This document shows, in pieces, positions 2,327 through 34,742 of a DNA stretch of 37,660 bases. Source of the DNA: a virus; IMG/VR virus record IMGVR_UViG_3300012984_000006, positions 1 to 37,660 of that record. One strand, 5' to 3'. The position numbers and the translations under genes are program-made. Numbering within the stretch: position 1 is the first letter of the stretch; each line of letters opens with the position of its first letter. The notes below the pieces were generated by a model, which worked only from the letters and a program-made list of their open reading frames with translations, was not told where the DNA came from and made no database searches.

Positions 2327-4699
2327 GTGAGCCAACCTACAACCACAACACAATATAGCCGCCCAACGATTGCATTGTGTTGCATTCTGAAAGACGAAAT
2401 CAAAAACCTTCCACAATTGTTGAGATCAGTTGAAGGGTGCTTTGATGAAATACATTTAACAGATACTGGATCTACCGATGGGAGTATCGAGTACATCAGA
2501 GAACACCAAATCAAATGGATGGATACAGGTTCTAACATTGCCAATACTCCCATCATTTTAAAAACCTTTGAATGGTGTGATGATTTTGCAGCTGCAAGAA
2601 ACCATTCCATGAAAGGCGTCACAACTGATTACGTCATGTGGATGGATTTAGATGATGTATTGTCAGATAAGGAAGCATTTAAGAGATGGCGCGATCATGT
2701 CATGATGCTTGGCGATTTCTGGATGGTTCCGTATTACTATGGCTTTGATGAGCACGGGAATCCAAACTGTACGTTCTTAAGAGAGCGTGTGATTAAAACG
2801 ACTAAGAAGTTTGACTGGCAATATTTTATCCATGAAGGAATGATCCCAAGTCCTGATCAGCACATTGCGGCTCAAGCCATTTCAACATGGCAAGTCCATC
2901 ACAAACGTACAAAGGAAGATTATGAAAAAGATTTTAGTAGAAACGTATCAATGCTTGAAGCTTATGTTAAAAAAGGCAACGAATTACCGGTTCGACTGAA
3001 GTTTTACTACGGAAAAGAGCTCTTTGATAAACAACGCTTTCAAGAGGCTTACGTATGGCTTGATCAAATTGTGGATAACAAAGATCTGCAAGGTCATGAT
3101 CGAATTTTAACGTTTGAATATTTAATTAGAGCAAGCATCCAGAGATTTTTTGCAGAACAAGCGCATAAACCTTCTCATGAGCAAGATAAAAACCTTATTG
3201 CAAAATCTTTATCACTTGGACTTCAAGCTTTGGCTTTAGCTCCGCAACGTGCTGAATTTCATTGTTTGATTGCAGATTGTTTTGAGTTATTAGATCAGCC
3301 AATGAACGGTATTCCATTTCTTGAGGCTGCAAAGTCTTGCTCAATTGCACAAGCCAATGCTGCAACATTCTTATTTACCAACGTTCCAGCTTATACGTTT
3401 GTACCGGCTAATAAATTGTCCATTTTAAAGCACGCAAAAGGTGATTTAGATGGTGCGATTTTAGAAGTGAAGCGTGCGTTTGAGTTATACAAACATCCTG
3501 ACAGCGAAAAGATTTTAACTCAGCTTTTAACAGTAAAAGAGACTGTTACAAAAGGACAAAATCCGAACAAGGTTGAAACGAATGAAATTGTCATTTCTTG
3601 CATTCCTAATTCTCATCCTTATGAGTTTGATGATCATGTATATAGCGAACGTGGTATTGGTGGATCAGAGACGGCTTTGGTTGAGGTCGCAAAGTATCTT
3701 AGAACTAAGACTCAAAAACCTGTGATTGTTTTCAACACACGTGAAAAAGAATACGTATCACCAGAAGGTGTTGTGTATAAGCCAGCAAATCAAATGTGGG
3801 ATTACTTCTGTGGCAGAAAACCAGAGGTCCATATTGCTTGGAGACATAACGTGAAGCTCACAGATGCTCCAACTTACTTGTGGTGCCATGATTTAACAAC
3901 ACCAGGTGCAGAGAGATCCGACATCTATGAAAAAATCATTTGTTTATCCGATTTTCACCGAAATTACGTTCAAGTCCAGCAAGGTATTAGTGAAGATAAA
4001 ATTGTTGTCTCAAGAAACGGCGTTAATGCGTCCAGATTTCAGAATAAAAAGACGAAGATTCCAACCAAGATCGTATGGCCGTCGTCTCCAGATCGAGGAC
4101 TAGACCGTGTGATGGACATTGTTCAACTGGCTCGTGAGAAATCAGGTGTCGATTTTGAACTGCATGTTTATTACGGCATGGAAAACATGAAAAAGTATCC
4201 AGGTCCGTACCAACAAATGGCTCTAGATCTAGAGAAGAAAATGAGTGAAAGACCATGGGTAAAATACCATGGCAATGTGGAGCAAAAAAAGCTTGCAGAA
4301 GAAATGCTTGAGGCCAGCATGTGGTTATATCCAGCAAACTTCATTGAAACGTACTGTATTACAGTTTTAGAAGCGATCTCGGCTGGAGTGTATCCAATTG
4401 TACGTGAAATCGGGGCCTTGAAAAATACGGTCAGACCATTTAGCGATAAAGACATGGCAGATTTAGTGTTTTTAGATGCCGGAACTCCTGATGAAAAACA
4501 GGCCTGGGCAGATCTTGTGATCGATTGCTACAATTTGAAGAAATGGGAAAAAGTGGACATGGGAGAGCTAGATTATTCATGGGAAGGTGTTGCCGATCAT
4601 TTCATGGAGATCATGGATTTAAAACCAGAGCTTCTTTCATCTGACATGATGATCTTCTCGCACAAAGGACCAACCTCTGTGCAAGAGTTAGGGTTATAG
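2327..4699 (+). CDS. Two-domain glycosyltransferase: GT2 - helical repeat - GT4-like
   Basis: The product has 790 residues and starts at GTG 2327 after a purine-rich AAAGGGG site. Residues about 12-200 form a GT-A fold family 2 domain, with the DTGSTDGS segment (46-53) and the acidic metal-binding WMDLDD segment (105-110). Residues about 200-410 are helical, TPR-like repeats. From about 425 onward comes a GT-B, family 4-like domain with a GGSETA loop, a typical SRNGV segment and an ETY..TVLEA donor-binding segment near the end. The protein could therefore carry out two successive sugar transfers. It lies inside the virion-gene operon, between the fibre-like gene and the tail adaptor, so its likely target is a virion protein. 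That target is inference. Confidence 0.85.
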   Translation: MSQPTTTTQYSRPTIALCCILKDEIKNLPQLLRSVEGCFDEIHLTDTGSTDGSIEYIREHQIKWMDTGSNIANTPIILKTFEWCDDFAAARNHSMKGVTTDYVMWMDLDDVLSDKEAFKRWRDHVMMLGDFWMVPYYYGFDEHGNPNCTFLRERVIKTTKKFDWQYFIHEGMIPSPDQHIAAQAISTWQVHHKRTKEDYEKDFSRNVSMLEAYVKKGNELPVRLKFYYGKELFDKQRFQEAYVWLDQIVDNKDLQGHDRILTFEYLIRASIQRFFAEQAHKPSHEQDKNLIAKSLSLGLQALALAPQRAEFHCLIADCFELLDQPMNGIPFLEAAKSCSIAQANAATFLFTNVPAYTFVPANKLSILKHAKGDLDGAILEVKRAFELYKHPDSEKILTQLLTVKETVTKGQNPNKVETNEIVISCIPNSHPYEFDDHVYSERGIGGSETALVEVAKYLRTKTQKPVIVFNTREKEYVSPEGVVYKPANQMWDYFCGRKPEVHIAWRHNVKLTDAPTYLWCHDLTTPGAERSDIYEKIICLSDFHRNYVQVQQGISEDKIVVSRNGVNASRFQNKKTKIPTKIVWPSSPDRGLDRVMDIVQLAREKSGVDFELHVYYGMENMKKYPGPYQQMALDLEKKMSERPWVKYHGNVEQKKLAEEMLEASMWLYPANFIETYCITVLEAISAGVYPIVREIGALKNTVRPFSDKDMADLVFLDAGTPDEKQAWADLVIDCYNLKKWEKVDMGELDYSWEGVADHFMEIMDLKPELLSSDMMIFSHKGPTSVQELGL

Positions 4700-21323: not shown

Positions 21324-22520
21324 TTAACCTTTAATACACGCGATTTGTTTTAATTGTGCAACAACTTCAACTAAATCCTTTTGATTTTCCATAACTTCAT
21401 CAATGTTTTTGTAAGCGCCTGGAATTTCATCCAAAACGCCCGCATCTTTTCTGCACTCAACGCCTTCAGTTTGCGCCTTAAGGTCTTCAACGGTGAAATT
21501 TTCTTTGGCTTTGGTTCTAGACATAGTTCTACCAGCCCCGTGTGAGCATGAGTGAAAACTTTCTTGGTTTCCAAGTCCACGCACAATAAAAGATTTTGCT
21601 CCCATTGACCCTGGTATGATCCCAAAATCTCCACTGCGCGCACGGACCGCTCCTTTTCTAGTAACAAGTACGTTTTCGCCATAGTGATTCTCCTTTGAAG
21701 CATAGTTATGGTGACAATTTACTTCCATGAGTCTTTCTACTTTTCCATCTTCATTATAAATTGCATAAGATAAATCTTTTAAAATTCTAGACATCATTTC
21801 AATACGATTTTGAAAAGCATATTCCTGACACCAATTTAGATCGTTAATATATTCATCGTATTCTTTTGTTTGCTCAGCTAGATAAGCAAGGTCTGGATCT
21901 GGAAGTTCTATGAACATTTTCTTCATCAAACTGCGTGCGTTATCTATGTGATATTTAGCAACAGCATTCCCGATGTTTCTTGAACCAGAGTGAAGCATTA
22001 CCCAAACGTTATTTTCTGTATCTAAACAAATTTCAATAAAATGGTTGCCACCACCTAAAGAGCCTAGCTTTTCAAGTGTCGATTTCATTAAGTCTCTTTT
22101 AAAAGAAGAAACGGCACTCATGTTGTAATAAGTTTTCCAGCCTTCCCATTTTTCAACTGATTCCGTAATTCGATGATTCCCATCAAAACCAACAGGCACA
22201 GATCTCTCAATTGAATGTCTTATTTCTTTAATTTTGTCTTGAATAACTCTGTGATCTAAGTCGGTTTTAACCGCCATCATGCCACAACCAATGTCAACTC
22301 CAACAGCAGCTGGGATCACGGCACCTTTTGTGGCAATAACAGAACCAACGGTTGCCCCTAAGCCAAAATGAACATCTGGCATTGCAGCTACATGCTTAAA
22401 GACAAATGGAAGCTTTGCTGTGTTCTTAAGTTGTTTTAAAGCAGACTCTTCAAGCTTTGTTAAATCAGTCCATATTTTAATTGGAACTCTTTGTGCGATC
22501 TCGTCATAAATTACGTTCAT
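21324..22520 (-). CDS. rtcB: RtcB-type RNA ligase
   Basis: The product has 398 residues, close to the usual length. It carries the metal-site GVDIGCG with Cys79, GGGNHFIE (157-164), HSGSRNIG (177-184) and the guanylylated His in SHGAGR (His327). RtcB joins 2',3'-cyclic phosphate or 3'-phosphate ends to 5'-OH ends using GTP and Mn2+, so it can heal tRNAs cut by anticodon nucleases. Archease, its usual helper, is not seen. A tRNA-Pro follows eight bases downstream. The phage could use it to undo a host tRNA-cutting defence, as T4 does with Pnkp and Rnl1; that use is inference. Confidence 0.95.
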   Translation of the reverse strand: MNVIYDEIAQRVPIKIWTDLTKLEESALKQLKNTAKLPFVFKHVAAMPDVHFGLGATVGSVIATKGAVIPAAVGVDIGCGMMAVKTDLDHRVIQDKIKEIRHSIERSVPVGFDGNHRITESVEKWEGWKTYYNMSAVSSFKRDLMKSTLEKLGSLGGGNHFIEICLDTENNVWVMLHSGSRNIGNAVAKYHIDNARSLMKKMFIELPDPDLAYLAEQTKEYDEYINDLNWCQEYAFQNRIEMMSRILKDLSYAIYNEDGKVERLMEVNCHHNYASKENHYGENVLVTRKGAVRARSGDFGIIPGSMGAKSFIVRGLGNQESFHSCSHGAGRTMSRTKAKENFTVEDLKAQTEGVECRKDAGVLDEIPGAYKNIDEVMENQKDLVEVVAQLKQIACIKG

Positions 22521-25053: not shown

Positions 25054-25782
25054 ATGGATTATATTGAACTTAATAAGCAATTTAATGAAGCTAAACCCTT
25101 TAGGCATGTTGTGATTGATAACTGGTTTTCTAACTGCAAAGCACTTATCGAAGATTTTCCAGCTCCAAACTCAGACTGGTACACTTATGACAACATTTTT
25201 GAGAAAAAAAGGGCAATAGATCAACTTGGTAAAATGCCAGATCTCATCGCTTTATTTTTAATGGAATGCAATTGCCATAAGTTCATCAATCAGCTTGAGC
25301 TCATTACCGGTATCGACGGTTTAATTGGCGATCCATGGTATCGAGGTGGTGGCATGCACCAAATTCTCCCTGGTGGTAAGCTTGATATCCATGTTGATTT
25401 TAACTGGCACCAAAAGCTAAAGCTCGATCGTCGTTTAAATGTGATCCTATATCTTAACGAAGACTGGAAGGAAGAATATGGCGGTCATTTAGAATTATGG
25501 AACGCTAGCATGACCCAGTGTGAAAAAAAGATTTTACCTATTGCCAACCGTTTAGTGATATTTGAGACTACGGAAACTTCCTATCACGGGCATCCCGATC
25601 CCGTAAATTGCCCGGATGGGATGACTCGTAAATCTCTTGCTCTTTACTACTATACCAATGGTCGTCCAGAGCATGAAAAGGCCGCACCACACTCGACTAA
25701 ATTTCAGATGCGTCCGACCGATCAAACCAGTGCCGAGATTGAAGAATTAAGGCGCAAACGAAATGAAGGACGATTGAAATGA
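25054..25782 (+). CDS. 2-oxoglutarate/Fe(II)-dependent oxygenase
   Basis: The product has 242 residues with the double-stranded beta-helix pattern of prolyl-hydroxylase-like oxygenases. It has His113-x-Asp115 (DIHVDFN), the partner strand LNVILYLNEDW, a GGHLELW strand, a distal His in SYHGHPDP (about 178-180), and Arg192 (TRKSLALYYY) to bind 2-oxoglutarate. It would hydroxylate a protein side chain, a sugar or another small substrate. It heads a rightward block with sugar-nucleotide and transferase genes, so its substrate may belong to the same surface-modification pathway; that link is inference. Confidence 0.85.
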   Translation: MDYIELNKQFNEAKPFRHVVIDNWFSNCKALIEDFPAPNSDWYTYDNIFEKKRAIDQLGKMPDLIALFLMECNCHKFINQLELITGIDGLIGDPWYRGGGMHQILPGGKLDIHVDFNWHQKLKLDRRLNVILYLNEDWKEEYGGHLELWNASMTQCEKKILPIANRLVIFETTETSYHGHPDPVNCPDGMTRKSLALYYYTNGRPEHEKAAPHSTKFQMRPTDQTSAEIEELRRKRNEGRLK

Positions 25783-26042
25783 GTAGAACTAGTTGGAAAA
25801 AAGAGTTTTTAAAAGTCTTTGAGCGAACTGGCGATAGCTTTGAAAACATAAAAACAACCCTTAGCTCTGAAGAAATGCAAAAAGAATTTGATAATGATTA
25901 TGGTGGAGTTGAAGGCGCGCCATTTACCGCTTGGTCTGATAAATATGTTTATTTTCCTATTTGTTATGATGGATCAGAATGGATAGGCTGGGTAGAAAGA
26001 AATCCATGTGATACGCCATCACTACATCAAGGTGGTGGATAA
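25779..26042 (+). CDS. Small conserved phage protein, unknown
   Basis: The product has 87 residues. The central and C-terminal part PFTAWSDKYVYFPICYDGSEWIG followed by RNPC...HQGGG is a pattern I know from small proteins in many phages, function unknown. It overlaps the oxygenase stop by 4 bp (ATGA) and its stop shares a base with the next start, so it is translated within the sugar-related block. Confidence 0.65.
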   Translation: MSRTSWKKEFLKVFERTGDSFENIKTTLSSEEMQKEFDNDYGGVEGAPFTAWSDKYVYFPICYDGSEWIGWVERNPCDTPSLHQGGG

Positions 26043-27031
26043 TGAAAAGAATTCTGATAACTGGAAGCGCTGGGTTTGTTGCAAGTCACCTTGTTGAACA
26101 TGTTTTAGCAAACACAGACTGGCATGTAATAGGGATTGATTCTTTTAAACATCGTGGTGATTCTTTCCGGATTGTTGGAGATCCAAAGCGCTATGATGTT
26201 TATTGCCATGATTTAACATCACCCATTTCACATAGACTCATTGATAAAATTGGACATGTGGATTACGTGATGATGATTGCCAGTGAATCCCACGTAGATC
26301 GTTCTATCTCAGACCCAGTTCCATTTATTGAAAACAACATTAAACTTACACTTAATGTTTTGGAATACTGTAGACAAATAAAGCCTGAAAAAATCATTCA
26401 ATGCTCAACTGATGAAGTTTTTGGGCCGGCACCAGAAAACTACGCCCATCATGAGTGGGATGTAATTGCGCCATCTAATCCCTATGCTGCAAGTAAAGCC
26501 TCACAAGACGCTATCGCTTTTTCTTATTGGAGAACATACAACTGCCCCATCATGGTTACTCATTGCATGAACATGATCGGGGAACGTCAAGATACTGAGA
26601 AGTTTATTCCGATGTGTATTAAGAAAATAATTAAAGGCGACACGATTACAATCCATGCTAATTCTGATAGATCAAAAATAGGATCACGCATGTACATTCA
26701 TGCTAGAAACTTAGCAGACGCATGGCTTTATCTTTTAAACAATCACACTCCAACAAAGTATGGAGAGAGTGAAAGATTAGATAAGTTTAACATCGTGGGT
26801 GAATTAGAATTAAACAATCTAGAGGTCGCACAATTTATTGCTGAGACTCTCAATATGCCACTTAAATATGATCTTGTAGATTTTCATTCTTCCAGGCCGG
26901 GGCATGACCTCAGATATGCGCTTAATGGTAATAAGATCTATGAAATGGGATGGCGTCCACCAGTGCCTTTAAAAGATTCTTTAAAGAAAATGATCCAATG
27001 GACTATTGATCATCAGGAGTGGTTGAAATGA
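26042..27031 (+). CDS. NAD-dependent sugar-nucleotide 4,6-dehydratase/epimerase (RmlB-like SDR)
   Basis: The product has 329 residues, an extended short-chain dehydrogenase/reductase. It shows the NAD-binding GSAGFVASH (8-16), the dehydratase catalytic STDE (122-125, in CSTDEVFG) and the Y148-x3-K152 pair (YAASKAS). The TDE triad points to a dTDP- or CDP-hexose 4,6-dehydratase rather than a simple epimerase. It would make a deoxy-sugar donor for the transferase encoded downstream. The rest of a deoxysugar pathway is absent, so the host must supply the nucleotidyl sugar and further steps. Confidence 0.88.
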   Translation: MKRILITGSAGFVASHLVEHVLANTDWHVIGIDSFKHRGDSFRIVGDPKRYDVYCHDLTSPISHRLIDKIGHVDYVMMIASESHVDRSISDPVPFIENNIKLTLNVLEYCRQIKPEKIIQCSTDEVFGPAPENYAHHEWDVIAPSNPYAASKASQDAIAFSYWRTYNCPIMVTHCMNMIGERQDTEKFIPMCIKKIIKGDTITIHANSDRSKIGSRMYIHARNLADAWLYLLNNHTPTKYGESERLDKFNIVGELELNNLEVAQFIAETLNMPLKYDLVDFHSSRPGHDLRYALNGNKIYEMGWRPPVPLKDSLKKMIQWTIDHQEWLK

Positions 27032-27219
27032 AATACAAATACCGTGTAGTTAAGAATAAAAAAGATGTATATAAAATTCAGTTTATGCTCGATGAACCTG
27101 GAAGACAGTGGCATTTTTGGAGTATGTGTGATGAATTTTCTTCTAAAGAAGAGGCACTGAAACAAATTGAATTTTTAAAGCAAAAAGATCTTGAACAAGA
27201 ATGGGTTGTGGTCGAATGA
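27028..27219 (+). CDS. Small protein in the sugar block, unknown
   Basis: The product has 63 residues from the ATG at 27028, which overlaps the dehydratase stop (ATGA); an in-frame GTG at 27019 is less likely. It is basic at the start (KYKYRVVKNKKD) and has a WHFWSMCDEFSSKEEALKQIEFL stretch suggesting a small beta-alpha fold. No family recognised. Confidence 0.55.
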   Translation: MKYKYRVVKNKKDVYKIQFMLDEPGRQWHFWSMCDEFSSKEEALKQIEFLKQKDLEQEWVVVE

Positions 27220-27410
27220 AACTTACTGCAAATGAGATTAAGCATCTTCAAGAATCACGCAGATGCGAGGCGTGTAATCACTTGATGGCTCTTCATACTA
27301 CTCACTGTTGCTATTCATGTGATGTGGATGGATGTCCATGCGTATGGGATAAAGTTGATGATCATCTTAAGGATAAAATTGAACCACTTGTTTTGGTGGA
27401 GTTAAAATGA
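27216..27410 (+). CDS. Small cysteine-rich zinc-binding protein
   Basis: The product has 64 residues from the ATG at 27216, overlapping the previous stop (ATGA). After a helix (TANEIKHLQESRR) come eight Cys and two His: CEAC, HTTHCCYSC, GCPC, the pattern of a compact zinc-binding domain. It sits between the dehydratase and the glycosyltransferase. Whether it belongs to the pathway or regulates expression cannot be told. Confidence 0.6.
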   Translation: MKLTANEIKHLQESRRCEACNHLMALHTTHCCYSCDVDGCPCVWDKVDDHLKDKIEPLVLVELK

Positions 27411-28201
27411 ATCAACTCCCTTTTGTATCAATCTTGGTTGTTACCTATTTAGAGAGTAATCAGAAATATTTAGATCTTTGTTTGGATTCCATTGAAAACC
27501 TCAACTATCCAAAAGACAGAATGGAAGTCATACTACTTTCAAGTGGTGAGTATGAACCAATGTTTAAAGAATCTCTCATTACAGTTCATTCCCACATGAA
27601 AACTCAACAACACTATCCTGAAAGCATTAATCGTGGTGCAAGTCTAGCTGATGAAAAAACAGACCATTACTTTATCCTAAATGATGATGTCATTTTAACA
27701 AAAGATTCTTTAAAAGAACTTGTTGAAACGATTGGTCCTATGGAGTGTGTGGCACAACCCATTTCAAATTGTGACAACCATATGAGATATGAACTTCAAT
27801 TCTATGCAGGCGCTAATTCTTTAAGTGTTCCAGCAAGCGCTTTATTAAAACGCTTTTATCGATATGAAGAGGACACAAAAGACTTTTGGCAGGCGCTTAA
27901 ATATTCTAGATCTGTTTATCCACGTGGTATTTTACTTCAAGAATGGGTAGCTTTTTACGCAACACTTATCCCTAAGAAAGTATGGGATAAAGTTGGCCCC
28001 CTTGATCCCAAGTACAAGACAGGACAAGATGATATCGATTACTGTAGACGCGCTAAAGCCTTGAAGATTCCGGCTGTTGTATGCCTATCATCATTTGTGT
28101 TTCACTTTGGCGGCGTTACCGCTGATCAAGTTCTTGACTGGGATACAAGGAGTTATAACATCAATTACTACAAGGAAAAATGGGGAGAGATGCCGACATG
28201 A
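27407..28201 (+). CDS. Family 2 glycosyltransferase
   Basis: The product has 264 residues. It has a GT-A family 2 start (VSILVVTYLES), a second acidic region LNDDVILTKD (92-101) equivalent to the metal-binding site, and a late GQDDIDYCRRAKAL segment like the catalytic base region of rhamnosyl-type transferases. It has no membrane segment, so it acts on soluble or membrane-associated acceptors in the cytoplasm. The donor could come from the dehydratase two genes upstream. Its stop overlaps the next start by 4 bp. Confidence 0.85.
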   Translation: MNQLPFVSILVVTYLESNQKYLDLCLDSIENLNYPKDRMEVILLSSGEYEPMFKESLITVHSHMKTQQHYPESINRGASLADEKTDHYFILNDDVILTKDSLKELVETIGPMECVAQPISNCDNHMRYELQFYAGANSLSVPASALLKRFYRYEEDTKDFWQALKYSRSVYPRGILLQEWVAFYATLIPKKVWDKVGPLDPKYKTGQDDIDYCRRAKALKIPAVVCLSSFVFHFGGVTADQVLDWDTRSYNINYYKEKWGEMPT

Positions 28202-29433: not shown

Positions 29434-29556
29434 GAGCATGAGATAGGTGTTTAAGATTGCAAGTCGAGATGCCTATGTAATTTGTTAGGGTTCGCCTAGA
29501 CCTTAAAACTAGGCACTTCACTGAACATTGAAGTTCAACACGAAGGATTGATTCTT

Positions 29557-29982
29557 ATGGATAAGAAACGCCCAAAACCAAAACACGCCATTCCAGGCAA
29601 ACAAGACTTTCAAAAGATTCACGAAGCACCAAAGCACGAAGACCTTGAAAAGTATGGTATCGCTGGCCTTAATCATGAACAGATTGCCTCAATATTAGGC
29701 ATGTCTAAAGATACATTAGAGCGATTCTTTAAGTCTGACCCGACGCTGCATGCGGCTGTAGAAAAGGGTAAATCCAATTCTATTCTTAAGGTTGCAGGCA
29801 CTGCTTATCAAATGGCAGTCTCAGGTGATGTGCCAGCCATGACCATGTTCTATTTAAAGACCCGTGCTAAGTGGAAAGAAACTCACGTAGTTGAAGAGCG
29901 CCCTGATGATGACACTCAAGCCAAACTAGACCAGATGGCTGAAGAGATTAAGCGTATCGCTAAAAAACCAAGCTATGACTAA
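29557..29982 (+). CDS. terS: Terminase small subunit
   Basis: The product has 141 residues from the ATG at 29557, nine bases after a GAAGGA site; a TTG touching that site is rejected. A helix-turn-helix (about 37-57, HEQIASILGMSKDTLERFF) is followed by helices and the typical DVPAMTMFYLKTRAKWKE section of phage small terminases. It would recognise the phage packaging site and bring DNA to the large subunit. It overlaps the large-terminase start by 8 bp. Confidence 0.85.
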   Translation: MDKKRPKPKHAIPGKQDFQKIHEAPKHEDLEKYGIAGLNHEQIASILGMSKDTLERFFKSDPTLHAAVEKGKSNSILKVAGTAYQMAVSGDVPAMTMFYLKTRAKWKETHVVEERPDDDTQAKLDQMAEEIKRIAKKPSYD

Positions 29983-30694
29983 TAATCTTCGCGTAGAAGC
30001 CCACATCAAAGCTCTGCGCGATCTCTACAAAGAATCCCTATATCATGTAGCCCGTGAAATCTGTAAGTACCCAGACGTCAATGAACGCACTCATGCTCGT
30101 ATTGTTGAAGCCCTAGAATCACCAACTGATAGAAAGCTGATATGCGTTCCACGTGGAACTTTAAAGTCCTCAGTGGGAACTATCGCCTACCCCATATGGC
30201 TTATGATTAATAATCCCAACATACGTATCCTGATTGATACTGAGGTCTATTCAAACTCCATTACATACTTACGTGAAATTAAAAACATCCTAGCCTCTGA
30301 AAAGTTCATTAGTCTTTTTGGAGATCTAAGGTCCGCTAACTGGAATGAAGGTGAGATCACACTCTCTAACCGCACGAAGACCTTTAAAGAGGCCACCATC
30401 ACATGTGGTGCTATTGGAACTATCAAGGTCGGTCAGCATTACGACGTAATCATAGCCGATGACTATAGCTCAAATAGAAACTGTAACAGTCCAGAACAGC
30501 GACAAAAGGTTATCGATCATTTCAAATACAACTTATCTATCCTTGAGCCTGATGGAATCGTTGCGGTTATTGGAACCAGGTACCATGAAGACGATATTAT
30601 TGGCTTTATTATTAAAAAAATCCTAGGCTTTACAAACGAGACCGTTATGAGACAAAATCTCGTTAAACATAAAGGAGTATATTGGTATGAGTAG
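29975..30694 (+). CDS. terL: Terminase large subunit, ATPase half (split gene)
   Basis: The product has 239 residues. It has the full motor domain: a deviant Walker A (VPRGTLKSS, 58-66), Walker B HYDVIIADDY (155-164) and the coupling motif GTRYHEDD (200-207). It then stops after a short tail ending GVYWYE, just where a normal terminase passes into its nuclease domain. The tail bases double as the ribosome binding site of the next gene. The nuclease half lies at 30977 in the same frame, with several stops in between. Together the halves give 509 residues, the usual full length. Confidence 0.9.
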   Translation: MTNNLRVEAHIKALRDLYKESLYHVAREICKYPDVNERTHARIVEALESPTDRKLICVPRGTLKSSVGTIAYPIWLMINNPNIRILIDTEVYSNSITYLREIKNILASEKFISLFGDLRSANWNEGEITLSNRTKTFKEATITCGAIGTIKVGQHYDVIIADDYSSNRNCNSPEQRQKVIDHFKYNLSILEPDGIVAVIGTRYHEDDIIGFIIKKILGFTNETVMRQNLVKHKGVYWYE

Positions 30695-30977
30695 CTCAAG
30701 AGATCTATTAGCCTATGGAATAACCACAACAGCATTAGGTGGCGGCGCATCTGTCATCGTTCAAGCAACGGCACAACAATACGTTGTCGGACGTCTGCTT
30801 TATAGCAATTCAACACTAGCTGCAATTGCCGGTAATACAGCTGCATTCCCAAGTATTCCACTCCCTTATCCACAAGGTTTATTCATTGATGGTCCAGCTC
30901 CCGTTGCTATTGCCGGTGCTACTGTTTATTGCGTGACCTACTTAACTCAAGGTTTCAACATTACATTAGGGTACTGA
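30687..30977 (+). CDS. Small gene inserted between the two terminase halves
   Basis: The product has 96 residues, read in the +1 frame relative to terL. An AAAGGAG site nine bases upstream makes it well translated. It is rich in Ala, Gly, Thr, Ile and Val, with a Pro-rich centre (PSIPLPYPQGLFIDGPAPV), and looks like a compact beta-type virion protein rather than a homing endonuclease or intein. It has no catalytic motif that I can see. The ends overlap both neighbours (8 bp and one base), so all three are probably coupled. I do not recognise the family. Confidence 0.85.
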   Translation: MSSSRDLLAYGITTTALGGGASVIVQATAQQYVVGRLLYSNSTLAAIAGNTAAFPSIPLPYPQGLFIDGPAPVAIAGATVYCVTYLTQGFNITLGY

Positions 30978-31789
30978 TGTCTAAATATGCGATTGTTTAT
31001 GAGGGGGCTTTTCTAGAAGATGGTGAGCCCTACTTCCCTCAAAAGCTAGGTAGAGAAAAGCTTGCAGAGTTAAGGCGTGATCAAGGCCCTTACATGTTTG
31101 CCAACCAATACATGAACATCACGCTACCTGATGAAGACCAAGACTTTAAAAAAGCATGGCTTAAGTATTACACCCACATCCCTGAAAACACTTACACCTT
31201 TATTTTTGTTGATCCTGCCATATCGCTTAGAGATGGTGCCGATTACACAGCAACAACCATCGTACGTGTTGATTCTAATAAAACCTGGTATCTGACCCAC
31301 GCCATCAGACAACGGATCACAGCTACTCAAACTGTTGAGTGGTTATTTAAACTCAATGAAACCTTTAAGCCTCAGCGTATTGGTATTGAAGATGTGGCTT
31401 ATCAAAAGGCTTTAGAACACTTCACTGTTCAACGCATGATCGATACGAATAAGATGATTCCCTTAACTTCATTAAAGCGATCTGTGACGACACAAGACGG
31501 CAAAAAGTCCAGCAATTCAAAACCTATGCGCATAAGATCCTTGATTCCTCGCTTTGAATTTGGAACTATCCTCTTAGGGCAGGGACTTGATGATTTCTTA
31601 TTAGAATATTCGCAGTTCCCTCGTGGCAGTCATGATGACTTGCTTGATGCGCTCTCCTCCATTGAAGAGATTGTGTATTATCCCGACAAACCCAAGGAAG
31701 TAAACCATGTCAAAAACCCGCACCACAAAGACTTTGAAAGAAACTACATCCGGTCACTCGTCAAACGAGCCAACGATTCCAACGGCTGA
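30977..31789 (+). CDS. terL: Terminase large subunit, nuclease half (split gene)
   Basis: The product has 270 residues from the ATG at 30977, overlapping the stop of the inserted gene (TGATG); there is no strong ribosome binding site, so it depends on re-initiation. It begins with the linker segment found after the ATPase in intact terminases (ALEDGxPxFPxKL type, then FANQYMN). It contains the RNase H-like nuclease, with Asp79 (FVDPA), the acidic pair in IGIEDVAYQ, and SHDDLLDAL near the end. It would cut concatemeric DNA when reunited with the motor half. Confidence 0.9.
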   Translation: MSKYAIVYEGAFLEDGEPYFPQKLGREKLAELRRDQGPYMFANQYMNITLPDEDQDFKKAWLKYYTHIPENTYTFIFVDPAISLRDGADYTATTIVRVDSNKTWYLTHAIRQRITATQTVEWLFKLNETFKPQRIGIEDVAYQKALEHFTVQRMIDTNKMIPLTSLKRSVTTQDGKKSSNSKPMRIRSLIPRFEFGTILLGQGLDDFLLEYSQFPRGSHDDLLDALSSIEEIVYYPDKPKEVNHVKNPHHKDFERNYIRSLVKRANDSNG

Positions 31790-32573: not shown

Positions 32574-34742
32574 TTGGATTTTATTAAAAAAGCTGCAAGC
32601 TCTCTTGCACGAAGTTTTATGCCCGAAGGTGATCGACCGCCTATTTCTTCTGCATCCGATCAACCACAAGACGAACAAGACCTTGTAGCCTATATCAGAA
32701 ATCAAGTTGAACAATCGAGAAACTCTGCAGCCCGAGTGGCCTTTGAACAAATAGCCTTAACAAATACCGCTTATCTCATGGGCTATGACTCAGTCCAGTT
32801 TAACACAAATCTCAGACAGTTCTTACCAGTCGCCTGGCTTACGGGCAGTGGTTATTCTGGTGGAAAGTCTAAAGCCCATACCAACCTTATCCTTCCAAAC
32901 GTTCAAAACAGATTAGCAAGACTTCTTAAAAACCCTCCAAAATATGATGTGATGCCGGAAGTTGACTCCGTTGATGGTAAAGATGCAGCCGAGTTATCCC
33001 TAAAAGTTATCAACAATATCTGGGATAAAGAGCGCATTGATGAGAAGCGAATAGAATTAGGCATGTGGATGCAACAAGCAGGTCATGCTTGGATGAAAGT
33101 TTCTTGGAATGCTACAAAAGGCAAACCCCTTCCATTTCAGCAACAAGAGATGGATGATCTAGCCTCAGCTATTACAAGTCCTGAGCCTGTTAACGATGAG
33201 ATTCACTTTGAAGGCGATATCGATGTTGATGTTTGCTCTCCGTTTGAAATCTTTGTTGACCCTTTAGCTAAAAACCAAGACGAGATGACTTGGCTGATTC
33301 ATGCAAAAGTAAGAAAGATCTCCTACTTCCGTGATCACTATAAAGAGCGTGGCCATTTAGTTAAGTCAGAGGGTGCGTGGCTTTTATCCATTCAAAACTT
33401 ATTTAAAATCAACAACATGAATACCCGTGGATCAACTGGTTCAAATGACGATAAGTCCATGGAAAATGCAGCCATAGAGCTCGCGTACTTTGAAAAGCCA
33501 ACACGTAAATATCCTCGTGGTCGCATGATCATCACAGCTAACGGCATTCTCTTAAAGTACGATGAATTACCAATTGGTGAGATCCCTTACACTAAATTTG
33601 ATGACGTTAAGATCGGTGGAAAGTTCTATAGTGAGTCTTTAATCACACATTTACGCCCTATCCAAGACCAATATAATAGATCACAAGCCAGAAAAGCTGA
33701 GATGGTCAATAAGGGTCTAGCCTTAAAGATCATGGCAGGAAAAGGGCATGGCTTCACACAAGAATCCATGAACGATAACACTGAGATCTTAGAGTATAAC
33801 CATGTCGAAAGTACGTCTGAGCCAAAACAGTTAAAACCACCTGAAATCCCAAGCTTTGTTTTCACAGAAGATCAAAATTTAAAAGGAAACTTTGCTGAAA
33901 TTGCAGGGATTAGTGAGCCATCAAAAGGTCAAATCCCATCAGCCTCTATTCCTGGTGTTGGGTTACAACTTCTTATTGAATCAGACGACACACGAATTGG
34001 TATTGTTACAACTAGTAATGAAAACTCATGGGCACAAGTTGGCAGACACATCGCAAAGTATGCAGCAACTTACTACAAAACCACACGTTATCTCAAAGAA
34101 GCAGGCGAAGACGGGGAATATTCTTTCACTGAATTCACTGGTGATGACTTACGTGATTCCTTTGATGTCCGAGTTAAAAAAGGCTCAACACTTCCAAACT
34201 CTAAGGTGTTAAAGCGACAAGAAACAGTGAATCTCTTTGATAAGGGACTTTTGGGTGATCCAGCCGATCCAATGACTCGTTTCCATACACTAAAAGATCT
34301 AGATTATGGTGATGTGGGTGGAGCATGGGAAGATCTTCGAGTTAACATGCAACAGATCAACCGCACCATCAAAGCTATTGAGCAGGGGCAGATCCCAATT
34401 GTTAGTCCTGACGATAATCATGAGCTTCATTACGACTTTAAGAATCGCCTCAGAAAGACGATTAAATATGAAATGTATCAACCACAAATAAAAGCCGTCT
34501 TTGATCAAAACTTAGCTGAACATAAAATGTATATAGCATACCCACAATTAAAGGTCCCGCCTCCACCAATGCCACCACAACAACCAGGCGTTCCAGGTAA
34601 TGGTCAGGGCTTAATGCAAGAGCCACCGATGGATCAAAACTTTCAACCAACTTTAGAGCAATATCCAACGGATGAGCTTCCACCACAAGAGTCTCCTATG
34701 GACCCAGGACTTTTAGATATGAACGCTAACGGATTTAATTAA
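32574..34742 (+). CDS. Portal protein (P22-like)
   Basis: The product has 722 residues, the size of the P22 portal, and probably starts at TTG 32574 after AAAGGA. The sequence has the P22-like order: an N-terminal clip/stem part, a Trp-rich section (FLPVAWLTGSGYSGG), LILPNVQNRLARLLKNPP, DVDVCSPFEIFVDP, and the RPIQDQYNRSQARKAEMVNKG helix. A Pro/Gln/Met-rich tail ends it (about 660-722). It forms the dodecameric DNA gate at one capsid vertex. A TTG start may lower its output, which fits the twelve copies needed. Confidence 0.9.
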   Translation: MDFIKKAASSLARSFMPEGDRPPISSASDQPQDEQDLVAYIRNQVEQSRNSAARVAFEQIALTNTAYLMGYDSVQFNTNLRQFLPVAWLTGSGYSGGKSKAHTNLILPNVQNRLARLLKNPPKYDVMPEVDSVDGKDAAELSLKVINNIWDKERIDEKRIELGMWMQQAGHAWMKVSWNATKGKPLPFQQQEMDDLASAITSPEPVNDEIHFEGDIDVDVCSPFEIFVDPLAKNQDEMTWLIHAKVRKISYFRDHYKERGHLVKSEGAWLLSIQNLFKINNMNTRGSTGSNDDKSMENAAIELAYFEKPTRKYPRGRMIITANGILLKYDELPIGEIPYTKFDDVKIGGKFYSESLITHLRPIQDQYNRSQARKAEMVNKGLALKIMAGKGHGFTQESMNDNTEILEYNHVESTSEPKQLKPPEIPSFVFTEDQNLKGNFAEIAGISEPSKGQIPSASIPGVGLQLLIESDDTRIGIVTTSNENSWAQVGRHIAKYAATYYKTTRYLKEAGEDGEYSFTEFTGDDLRDSFDVRVKKGSTLPNSKVLKRQETVNLFDKGLLGDPADPMTRFHTLKDLDYGDVGGAWEDLRVNMQQINRTIKAIEQGQIPIVSPDDNHELHYDFKNRLRKTIKYEMYQPQIKAVFDQNLAEHKMYIAYPQLKVPPPPMPPQQPGVPGNGQGLMQEPPMDQNFQPTLEQYPTDELPPQESPMDPGLLDMNANGFN

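What the first reader, a model, noticed from the sequence alone, without database searches (positions are those of the whole stretch)
29975..31789. Large terminase split into two proteins by a small inserted gene
The terminase ATPase (239 aa) and nuclease (270 aa) are encoded by separate frames. The gap holds a 96-residue gene in another frame with a strong AAAGGAG site and overlaps at both ends. The two halves lie in the same frame, add up to a normal terminase length, and divide exactly at the ATPase-nuclease linker. Several stop codons lie in the terL frame across the insert, so readthrough cannot restore a fusion. The insert looks like a beta-rich virion protein, not a homing endonuclease, intein or intron. 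A packaging motor working as a two-piece enzyme, perhaps with the insert as a third subunit or bridge, would be new to my knowledge.
Basis: partly seen in the sequence, partly recalled or inferred. Interest (0 to 1): 0.88.

Follow-up and report, generated by a model that had tools for sequence, protein, structure and literature searches.

The report
Phage packaging motor split in two
A whole lineage of uncultured tailed phages encodes the enzyme that pumps DNA into the virus shell as two separate proteins, cut inside the ATPase domain rather than between its two domains, with a variable set of other genes sitting between the two halves.

Summary
The window has an ATPase-core protein (29975-30694), a 96-aa gene (30687-30977) and a lid-plus-nuclease protein (30977-31789). 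The same break occurs in 41 distinct contigs (window included) that form one clade (SH support 1.0 and 0.99 in separate trees of the halves). No fused terminase falls inside it; nearly all sister terminases are intact. An independent nuclease-based scan gave the same clean dichotomy. The gap ranges from 224 to 6346 bp, so the window's small gene is only the minimal case. A ~100-aa all-beta family sits in 35 of 41 gaps, often with long fibre-like genes or glycosyltransferases. The reading frame across the gap is random and no intron or intein was found, so splicing, readthrough or bypassing cannot be the shared explanation. One correction: the break is not at the ATPase-nuclease linker but about 50 residues earlier, inside the ATPase domain, before its last strand and the lid helices. 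Best explanation: an obligate two-chain motor (ASCE core plus lid-nuclease), with the gap as a cargo site. A role of the insert as third subunit or bridge is not supported. Protein-level proof is missing. New variant of a known kind.

The parts
29548..29982 (+). small-terminase-like ORF (144 aa) directly upstream
   Evidence: phrog_309 terminase small subunit, E 4e-13
29975..30694 (+). ATPase-core (ASCE) half of the large terminase, 239 aa; the last ~20 residues are a lineage-specific tail
   Evidence: phrog_38 E 5e-34; 52% identical to L008 half; covers L102 residues 1-253
30149..30172 (+). Walker A-type motif PRGTLKSS (residues 59-66)
   Evidence: P59 R60 G61 K64 S65 invariant in 12 split relatives
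30443..30463 (+). Walker B-type motif DVIIADD (residues 157-163)
   Evidence: D162 and D163 invariant
30572..30580 (+). coupling motif GTR (residues 200-202), the last conserved motif before the break
   Evidence: invariant in the split clade; break maps to L102 253/254
30671..30677 (+). AAAGGAG ribosome-binding-like site of the insert gene
30687..30977 (+). insert gene, 96 aa, divergent member of the ~100-aa all-beta family that marks the terL gap
   Evidence: HMM built without it finds it at 20.6 bits, E 4e-6 among window ORFs; best of 2000 shuffles 14.4 bits; AF2 all-beta, pLDDT 63
30977..31129 (+). first ~51 residues of the second half: last ATPase-domain strand and lid helices
   Evidence: align to L102 254-303; P74-26 ATPase-domain crystal structures reach model residue ~303
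30977..31789 (+). lid plus RNase H-like nuclease half of the large terminase, 270 aa
   Evidence: phrog_38 E 1e-41; D79, E138, D221, D224 invariant in 23 relatives; G20c nuclease structures match model 304-480
32574..34742 (+). portal protein, conserved downstream neighbour
   Evidence: P22_portal E 7e-21; 58% identical in L008
27407..28201 (+). glycosyltransferase outside the gap here; its homologue lies inside the terL gap of L008 and the family recurs in other gaps
   Evidence: 47% identical to L008 857-1660; glycosyltransferase family in the gap of 9 loci

Best explanation
The window's phage belongs to a clade in which the ancestral one-piece large terminase was broken once, inside the ATPase domain, between the helix after the GTR coupling motif and the last strand plus lid. 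Both pieces stay under strong purifying selection and keep every catalytic motif. The most likely mechanism is non-covalent reassembly: the second protein (lid plus nuclease) docks through its first ~50 residues onto the ATPase core made by the first protein, giving a two-chain motor subunit that drives packaging and cleaves DNA. The break site then became a permissive site inside the late operon, where virion-surface-type genes accumulate. Shown here: the break, its conservation, monophyly, completeness of the parts, position on a predicted intact structure, and gap contents. Inferred: complex formation, activity, and the roles of the cargo.
For: Same break in 41 distinct contigs from many metagenomes, monophyletic with SH-like support 1.0 (N half), 0.99 (C half) and 1.0 (joined), no intact member inside and intact outgroups. 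Independent nuclease-based scan: 38 of 38 hits at or above 317 bits are stand-alone 218-302 aa ORFs, while hits at or below 250 bits lie in longer terminase ORFs, mostly 459-521 aa where complete. No residue missing against intact L102; ATPase and nuclease residues invariant. pN 0.12-0.25 with saturated pS in close pairs for both halves. Distances of the two halves correlate, r 0.63. Break maps to L102 253/254; ATPase-domain structures extend to 303 and nuclease structures start at 304. Frame offset across the gap is random (11/17/13 loci), gap 224-6346 bp. No Rfam intron.
Against: No expression, proteomic or packaging data. All clade members are metagenomic contigs; none of 50,697 phage records shows a close match. 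The two-chain complex could not be modelled here, so docking is inferred from an intact sister's model. Some contigs lack the upstream half, apparently because they end before it.
Confidence: 0.82

Rival explanations
1. The insert is a third motor subunit or bridge: the small beta protein holds the two halves together, so packaging needs all three proteins.
For: A member of the beta family lies in 35 of 41 gaps and in no intact terL locus (33 counted in the clustering); in the window it overlaps both halves.
Against: Not found by profile in 6 of the 41 clade gaps (3 hold a look-alike); in L070 the gap holds a single unrelated 75-aa ORF. Often not adjacent to either half, 1-2 tandem copies (3 in one locus), low conservation: 32% vs 50% for the halves.
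Confidence: 0.1
2. The halves are rejoined after transcription by a group I or II intron, trans-splicing, or translational bypassing, giving one ~500-aa enzyme.
For: Herpesvirus UL15 is spliced and a staphylococcal phage terL is interrupted by a group I intron (PMC3079670; PMC11934314). In this window the halves share a frame.
Against: No Rfam intron at gathering score in 11 loci nor a credible one in the window gap at E 1. The gap is packed with coding ORFs; the frame offset is random; the nuclease half has its own start, usually overlapping or abutting the previous stop.
Confidence: 0.05
3. Only one half is used: the nuclease or the ATPase works alone or with a partner encoded elsewhere, and the other is decaying.
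For: phi29 packages with an ATPase whose C-terminal domain is not an active nuclease (own knowledge).
Against: Both halves keep all motifs and are under comparable purifying selection; the isolated core would lack the lid.
Confidence: 0.03

Closest known systems
One-piece large terminase of tailed phages (T7 gp19, T4 gp17, P74-26, D6E); PHROG phrog_38
   Same: Same motifs and domain order; both halves match phrog_38 consecutively; an intact sister's model matches solved terminases at Z 17-25
   Different: Encoded as two separate genes broken inside the ATPase domain, with other genes between
Herpesvirus UL15 terminase gene
   Same: The terminase gene is in two parts with other genes, including UL17 which takes part in packaging, between them (PMC3079670)
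   Different: UL15 is rejoined by RNA splicing and its inner genes mostly run the opposite way; here no intron was found and almost all gap genes run the same way
Intron- or intein-interrupted phage terL (staphylococcal phage AICAT, cyanophage Mic1)
   Same: terL reading frame is interrupted
   Different: Those carry a group I intron with an endonuclease, or inteins (PMC11934314, PMC7156551); none found here
PHROG families phrog_4758 and phrog_5573 (half-length terL)
   Same: They align to intact L102 at 16-256 and 256-475, i.e. they end and start at this same break site
   Different: Their source phages could not be identified here; annotated only as terminase large subunit
[quoted passage not shown]
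   Same: Reported to carry two genes related to terL (genes 4 and 10; PMC5513430)
   Different: Break site and sequence not examined; no close relation seen here
Phage ctLwi270 (MW202554.1) and Saprospiraceae MAG contig JANQSS010000092.1
   Same: terL in two ORFs with small ORFs between
   Different: Fall outside the clade in the trees; ctLwi270 breaks later, near the nuclease start, and also has an intein-like insert; no beta family in either

Membership tests
Large terminase (TerL) | ASCE ATPase with Walker A, Walker B and coupling motif | tested here: met
   P59 R60 G61 K64 S65, D162 D163, G200 T201 R202 invariant in the split clade; phrog_38 E 5e-34
Large terminase (TerL) | RNase H-like nuclease with catalytic acids | tested here: met
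   D79, E138, D221, D224 invariant; intact sister's nuclease part matches G20c nuclease, Z 16.7
Large terminase (TerL) | both domains on one chain | tested here: not met
   separate ORFs in all 41 clade members and four in-frame stops here
Large terminase (TerL) | ATPase-driven packaging into procapsids | not testable with these tools
   needs protein or phage work
Group I or II intron-interrupted terL | self-splicing intron RNA between the parts | tested here: not met
   no Rfam match at gathering score in 11 loci; no intron in the window gap at E 1
Intein-interrupted terL | in-frame intein joined to both halves | tested here: not met
   stop codons end the first half; only a ~20-residue tail follows the core, no intein-like extension on the second
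Gap-associated ~100-aa beta family (defined here) | profile match and position between the terL halves | tested here: met
   leave-one-out HMM 20.6 bits, E 4e-6, shuffles up to 14.4
Known virion decoration or fibre protein (insert) | match to a known family or fold | tested here: inconclusive
   no Pfam or PHROG match for the insert; low-confidence model, no significant fold match

The most novel reading that the evidence does not exclude
In this lineage the lid-nuclease chain is a separable, possibly exchangeable subunit that joins the ATPase ring only at some stages of packaging, and the gap-linked beta protein is a conserved accessory of that assembly. This would be a genuinely modular packaging motor.
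Probability: 0.12. Interest if true: 0.9.

Novelty: new variant of a known kind. Interest (0 to 1): 0.72.

Why it matters
Models of viral DNA packaging treat the lid (transmission or linker subdomain) and the nuclease as parts of one chain with the ATPase core (PMC5727402, PMC7617512). A lineage in which the chain is broken just before the lid, without splicing, would show that this covalent link is not needed. It offers a natural two-piece system in which core and lid-nuclease can be expressed, mutated and mixed separately. It is also a striking parallel to herpesvirus UL15, whose terminase gene likewise holds other genes between its parts, and it reveals an unrecognised cargo site in the late operon of an uncultured phage group. 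Annotation pipelines that expect a ~500-aa TerL may misread such genomes.

Tried and rejected
Single-sequence scans of viral contigs with the nuclease half and with the insert found nothing; the portal led to L008, and two-sequence profiles opened the clade. DNA and protein searches of the phage collection found no close isolate. Candidate or neighbouring terminases among phage records were checked and are annotated as one ORF: Jasmine, Shocker, ctEqG8, TripleJ, LE4, HTVC027P, Vibrio 1.015.O, vir526. Assembly error was rejected by conservation. Repeats around the insert gave only weak short matches, so no footprint of a recent insertion. Fold matches of the insert were below significance (best Z 6.5, PM2 spike) and are not used. 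IQ-TREE timed out, so FastTree was used. Full-text searches for split terminases found no paper on this arrangement, but subscription papers are not held.

Full report
Observation. The window carries an ATPase-type terminase ORF at 29975-30694, a 96-aa ORF at 30687-30977 and a nuclease ORF that aligns from ATG 30977 to 31789. Four stops lie in the shared frame from the end of the ATPase half to the nuclease start. Both halves match phrog_38 consecutively.

Is it an artefact? Searching with the portal led to a short IMG/VR contig, L008, with the same break. Its halves are 52% identical to the window's and its gap holds a glycosyltransferase and a 100-aa protein. The window's homologue of that glycosyltransferase lies outside the gap, at 27407-28201. 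Profiles from these two brought in many more loci.

A clean dichotomy. Of all loci with both domains, every one scoring in the clade range has the two domains in different ORFs, and every other one is a single ORF except two outliers discussed below. Forty-one distinct split loci, window included, form one clade in trees of the ATPase part, the nuclease part and both joined, with SH-like support 1.0, 0.99 and 1.0 and no intact member inside; the neighbouring branches are intact. A separate scan started from the nuclease half gave 38 stand-alone nuclease ORFs at 317 bits or more, against longer terminase ORFs at 250 bits or less. Several records overlap between scans, so these are not 79 independent genomes.

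Where is the break? An AlphaFold2 model of an intact sister, L102 (mean pLDDT 89), matches a T7-like phage terminase and those of T4, HK97, P74-26, Sf6 and D6E. P74-26 ATPase-domain structures cover model residues 28-303 and G20c nuclease structures cover 304-480. The window halves meet at L102 253/254, between the helix at 246-252 and the strand at 256-260. So the second protein carries the last strand and the two lid helices of the ATPase domain as well as the nuclease. In D6E the ATPase domain is described as ASCE plus lid, followed by a 12-residue linker to the nuclease (PMC5727402); that the two helices here are the lid is by analogy with those structures. Two half-length PHROG families end and begin at the same place, so a break at this site appears already in a public family set, without comment.

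What fills the gap? Gap length is 224-6346 bp, median 2424. Of 167 gap ORFs, 157 are on the same strand. A ~100-aa beta family occurs in 35 of 41 gaps by profile and in no intact terL locus (33 loci in the clustering); the two outliers also lack it. Leaving the window out of the profile, its insert is still found at E 4e-6, and 2000 shuffles reach at most 14.4 bits against 20.6. The family has no Pfam or PHROG match shared by its members and the model of the window's member is all-beta but of low confidence. Other recurring gap genes are glycosyltransferases (9 loci), a 105-204 aa family near the nuclease (9 loci), and long fibre-like ORFs without informative family matches. The small family is less conserved than the halves, 32% against 50% mean identity. 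This fits a virion-surface or adhesion cargo better than a motor part, but that is inference.

How it works. Rejoining by intron, intein, readthrough or bypassing is unsupported: no Rfam intron, random frame offset, separate starts, and stops. Both halves are under strong purifying selection and keep all motifs. The parsimonious mechanism is a two-chain enzyme in which the lid-nuclease protein docks on the ATPase core. This is inferred; no complex was modelled or measured.

Related cases. Herpesvirus UL15 has genes between its two exons but is spliced (PMC3079670). Staphylococcal and cyanophage terL genes are interrupted by an intron or inteins. Arthrobacter cluster AT phages are reported to have two terL-related genes (PMC5513430). 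ctLwi270 (MW202554.1) and a Saprospiraceae MAG contig have breaks but fall outside the clade. I found no paper describing the present arrangement in the open-access library.

Limits. All clade members are uncultured; completeness is unknown, and some contigs lack the upstream half. Hosts are unknown; the only genome contigs member of the clade is in a MAG labelled Nitrosotalea and may be misbinned.

Noticed in passing
L091 8708-10480: The ATPase half of this split terminase carries an intein-sized insertion near Walker A (590-aa ORF; profile 10-65 then 61-220 separated by ~370 residues), so the gene is split and possibly also intein-bearing.
   Followed up: no
L003 3929-6466 (MW202554.1): Phage ctLwi270 terL has an intein-like insert and a break near the nuclease start with a 62-aa ORF between.
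   Followed up: partly
L123 5643-7906: Saprospiraceae MAG contig with terL split at about the same site as the clade but outside it in the trees, with three unrelated small ORFs in the gap: possible independent break at the same place.
   Followed up: partly
L014 5618-6019 and 8 other loci: A recurring 105-204 aa family (VVFTKNNA...PPHFWK) in the terL gap, directly upstream of the nuclease half in several loci.
   Followed up: no
window 25054-28201 and 2327-4699: Cluster of sugar-related genes by sequence appearance (epimerase-like, glycosyltransferases) and a large glycosyltransferase-like ORF, suggesting surface or virion glycosylation.
   Followed up: no
window 21324-22520: RtcB-like RNA ligase by sequence appearance on the minus strand.
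   Followed up: no
L114 4740-7016: Intact sister terL of 758 aa with an intein-like insertion between the lid region and the nuclease.
   Followed up: no
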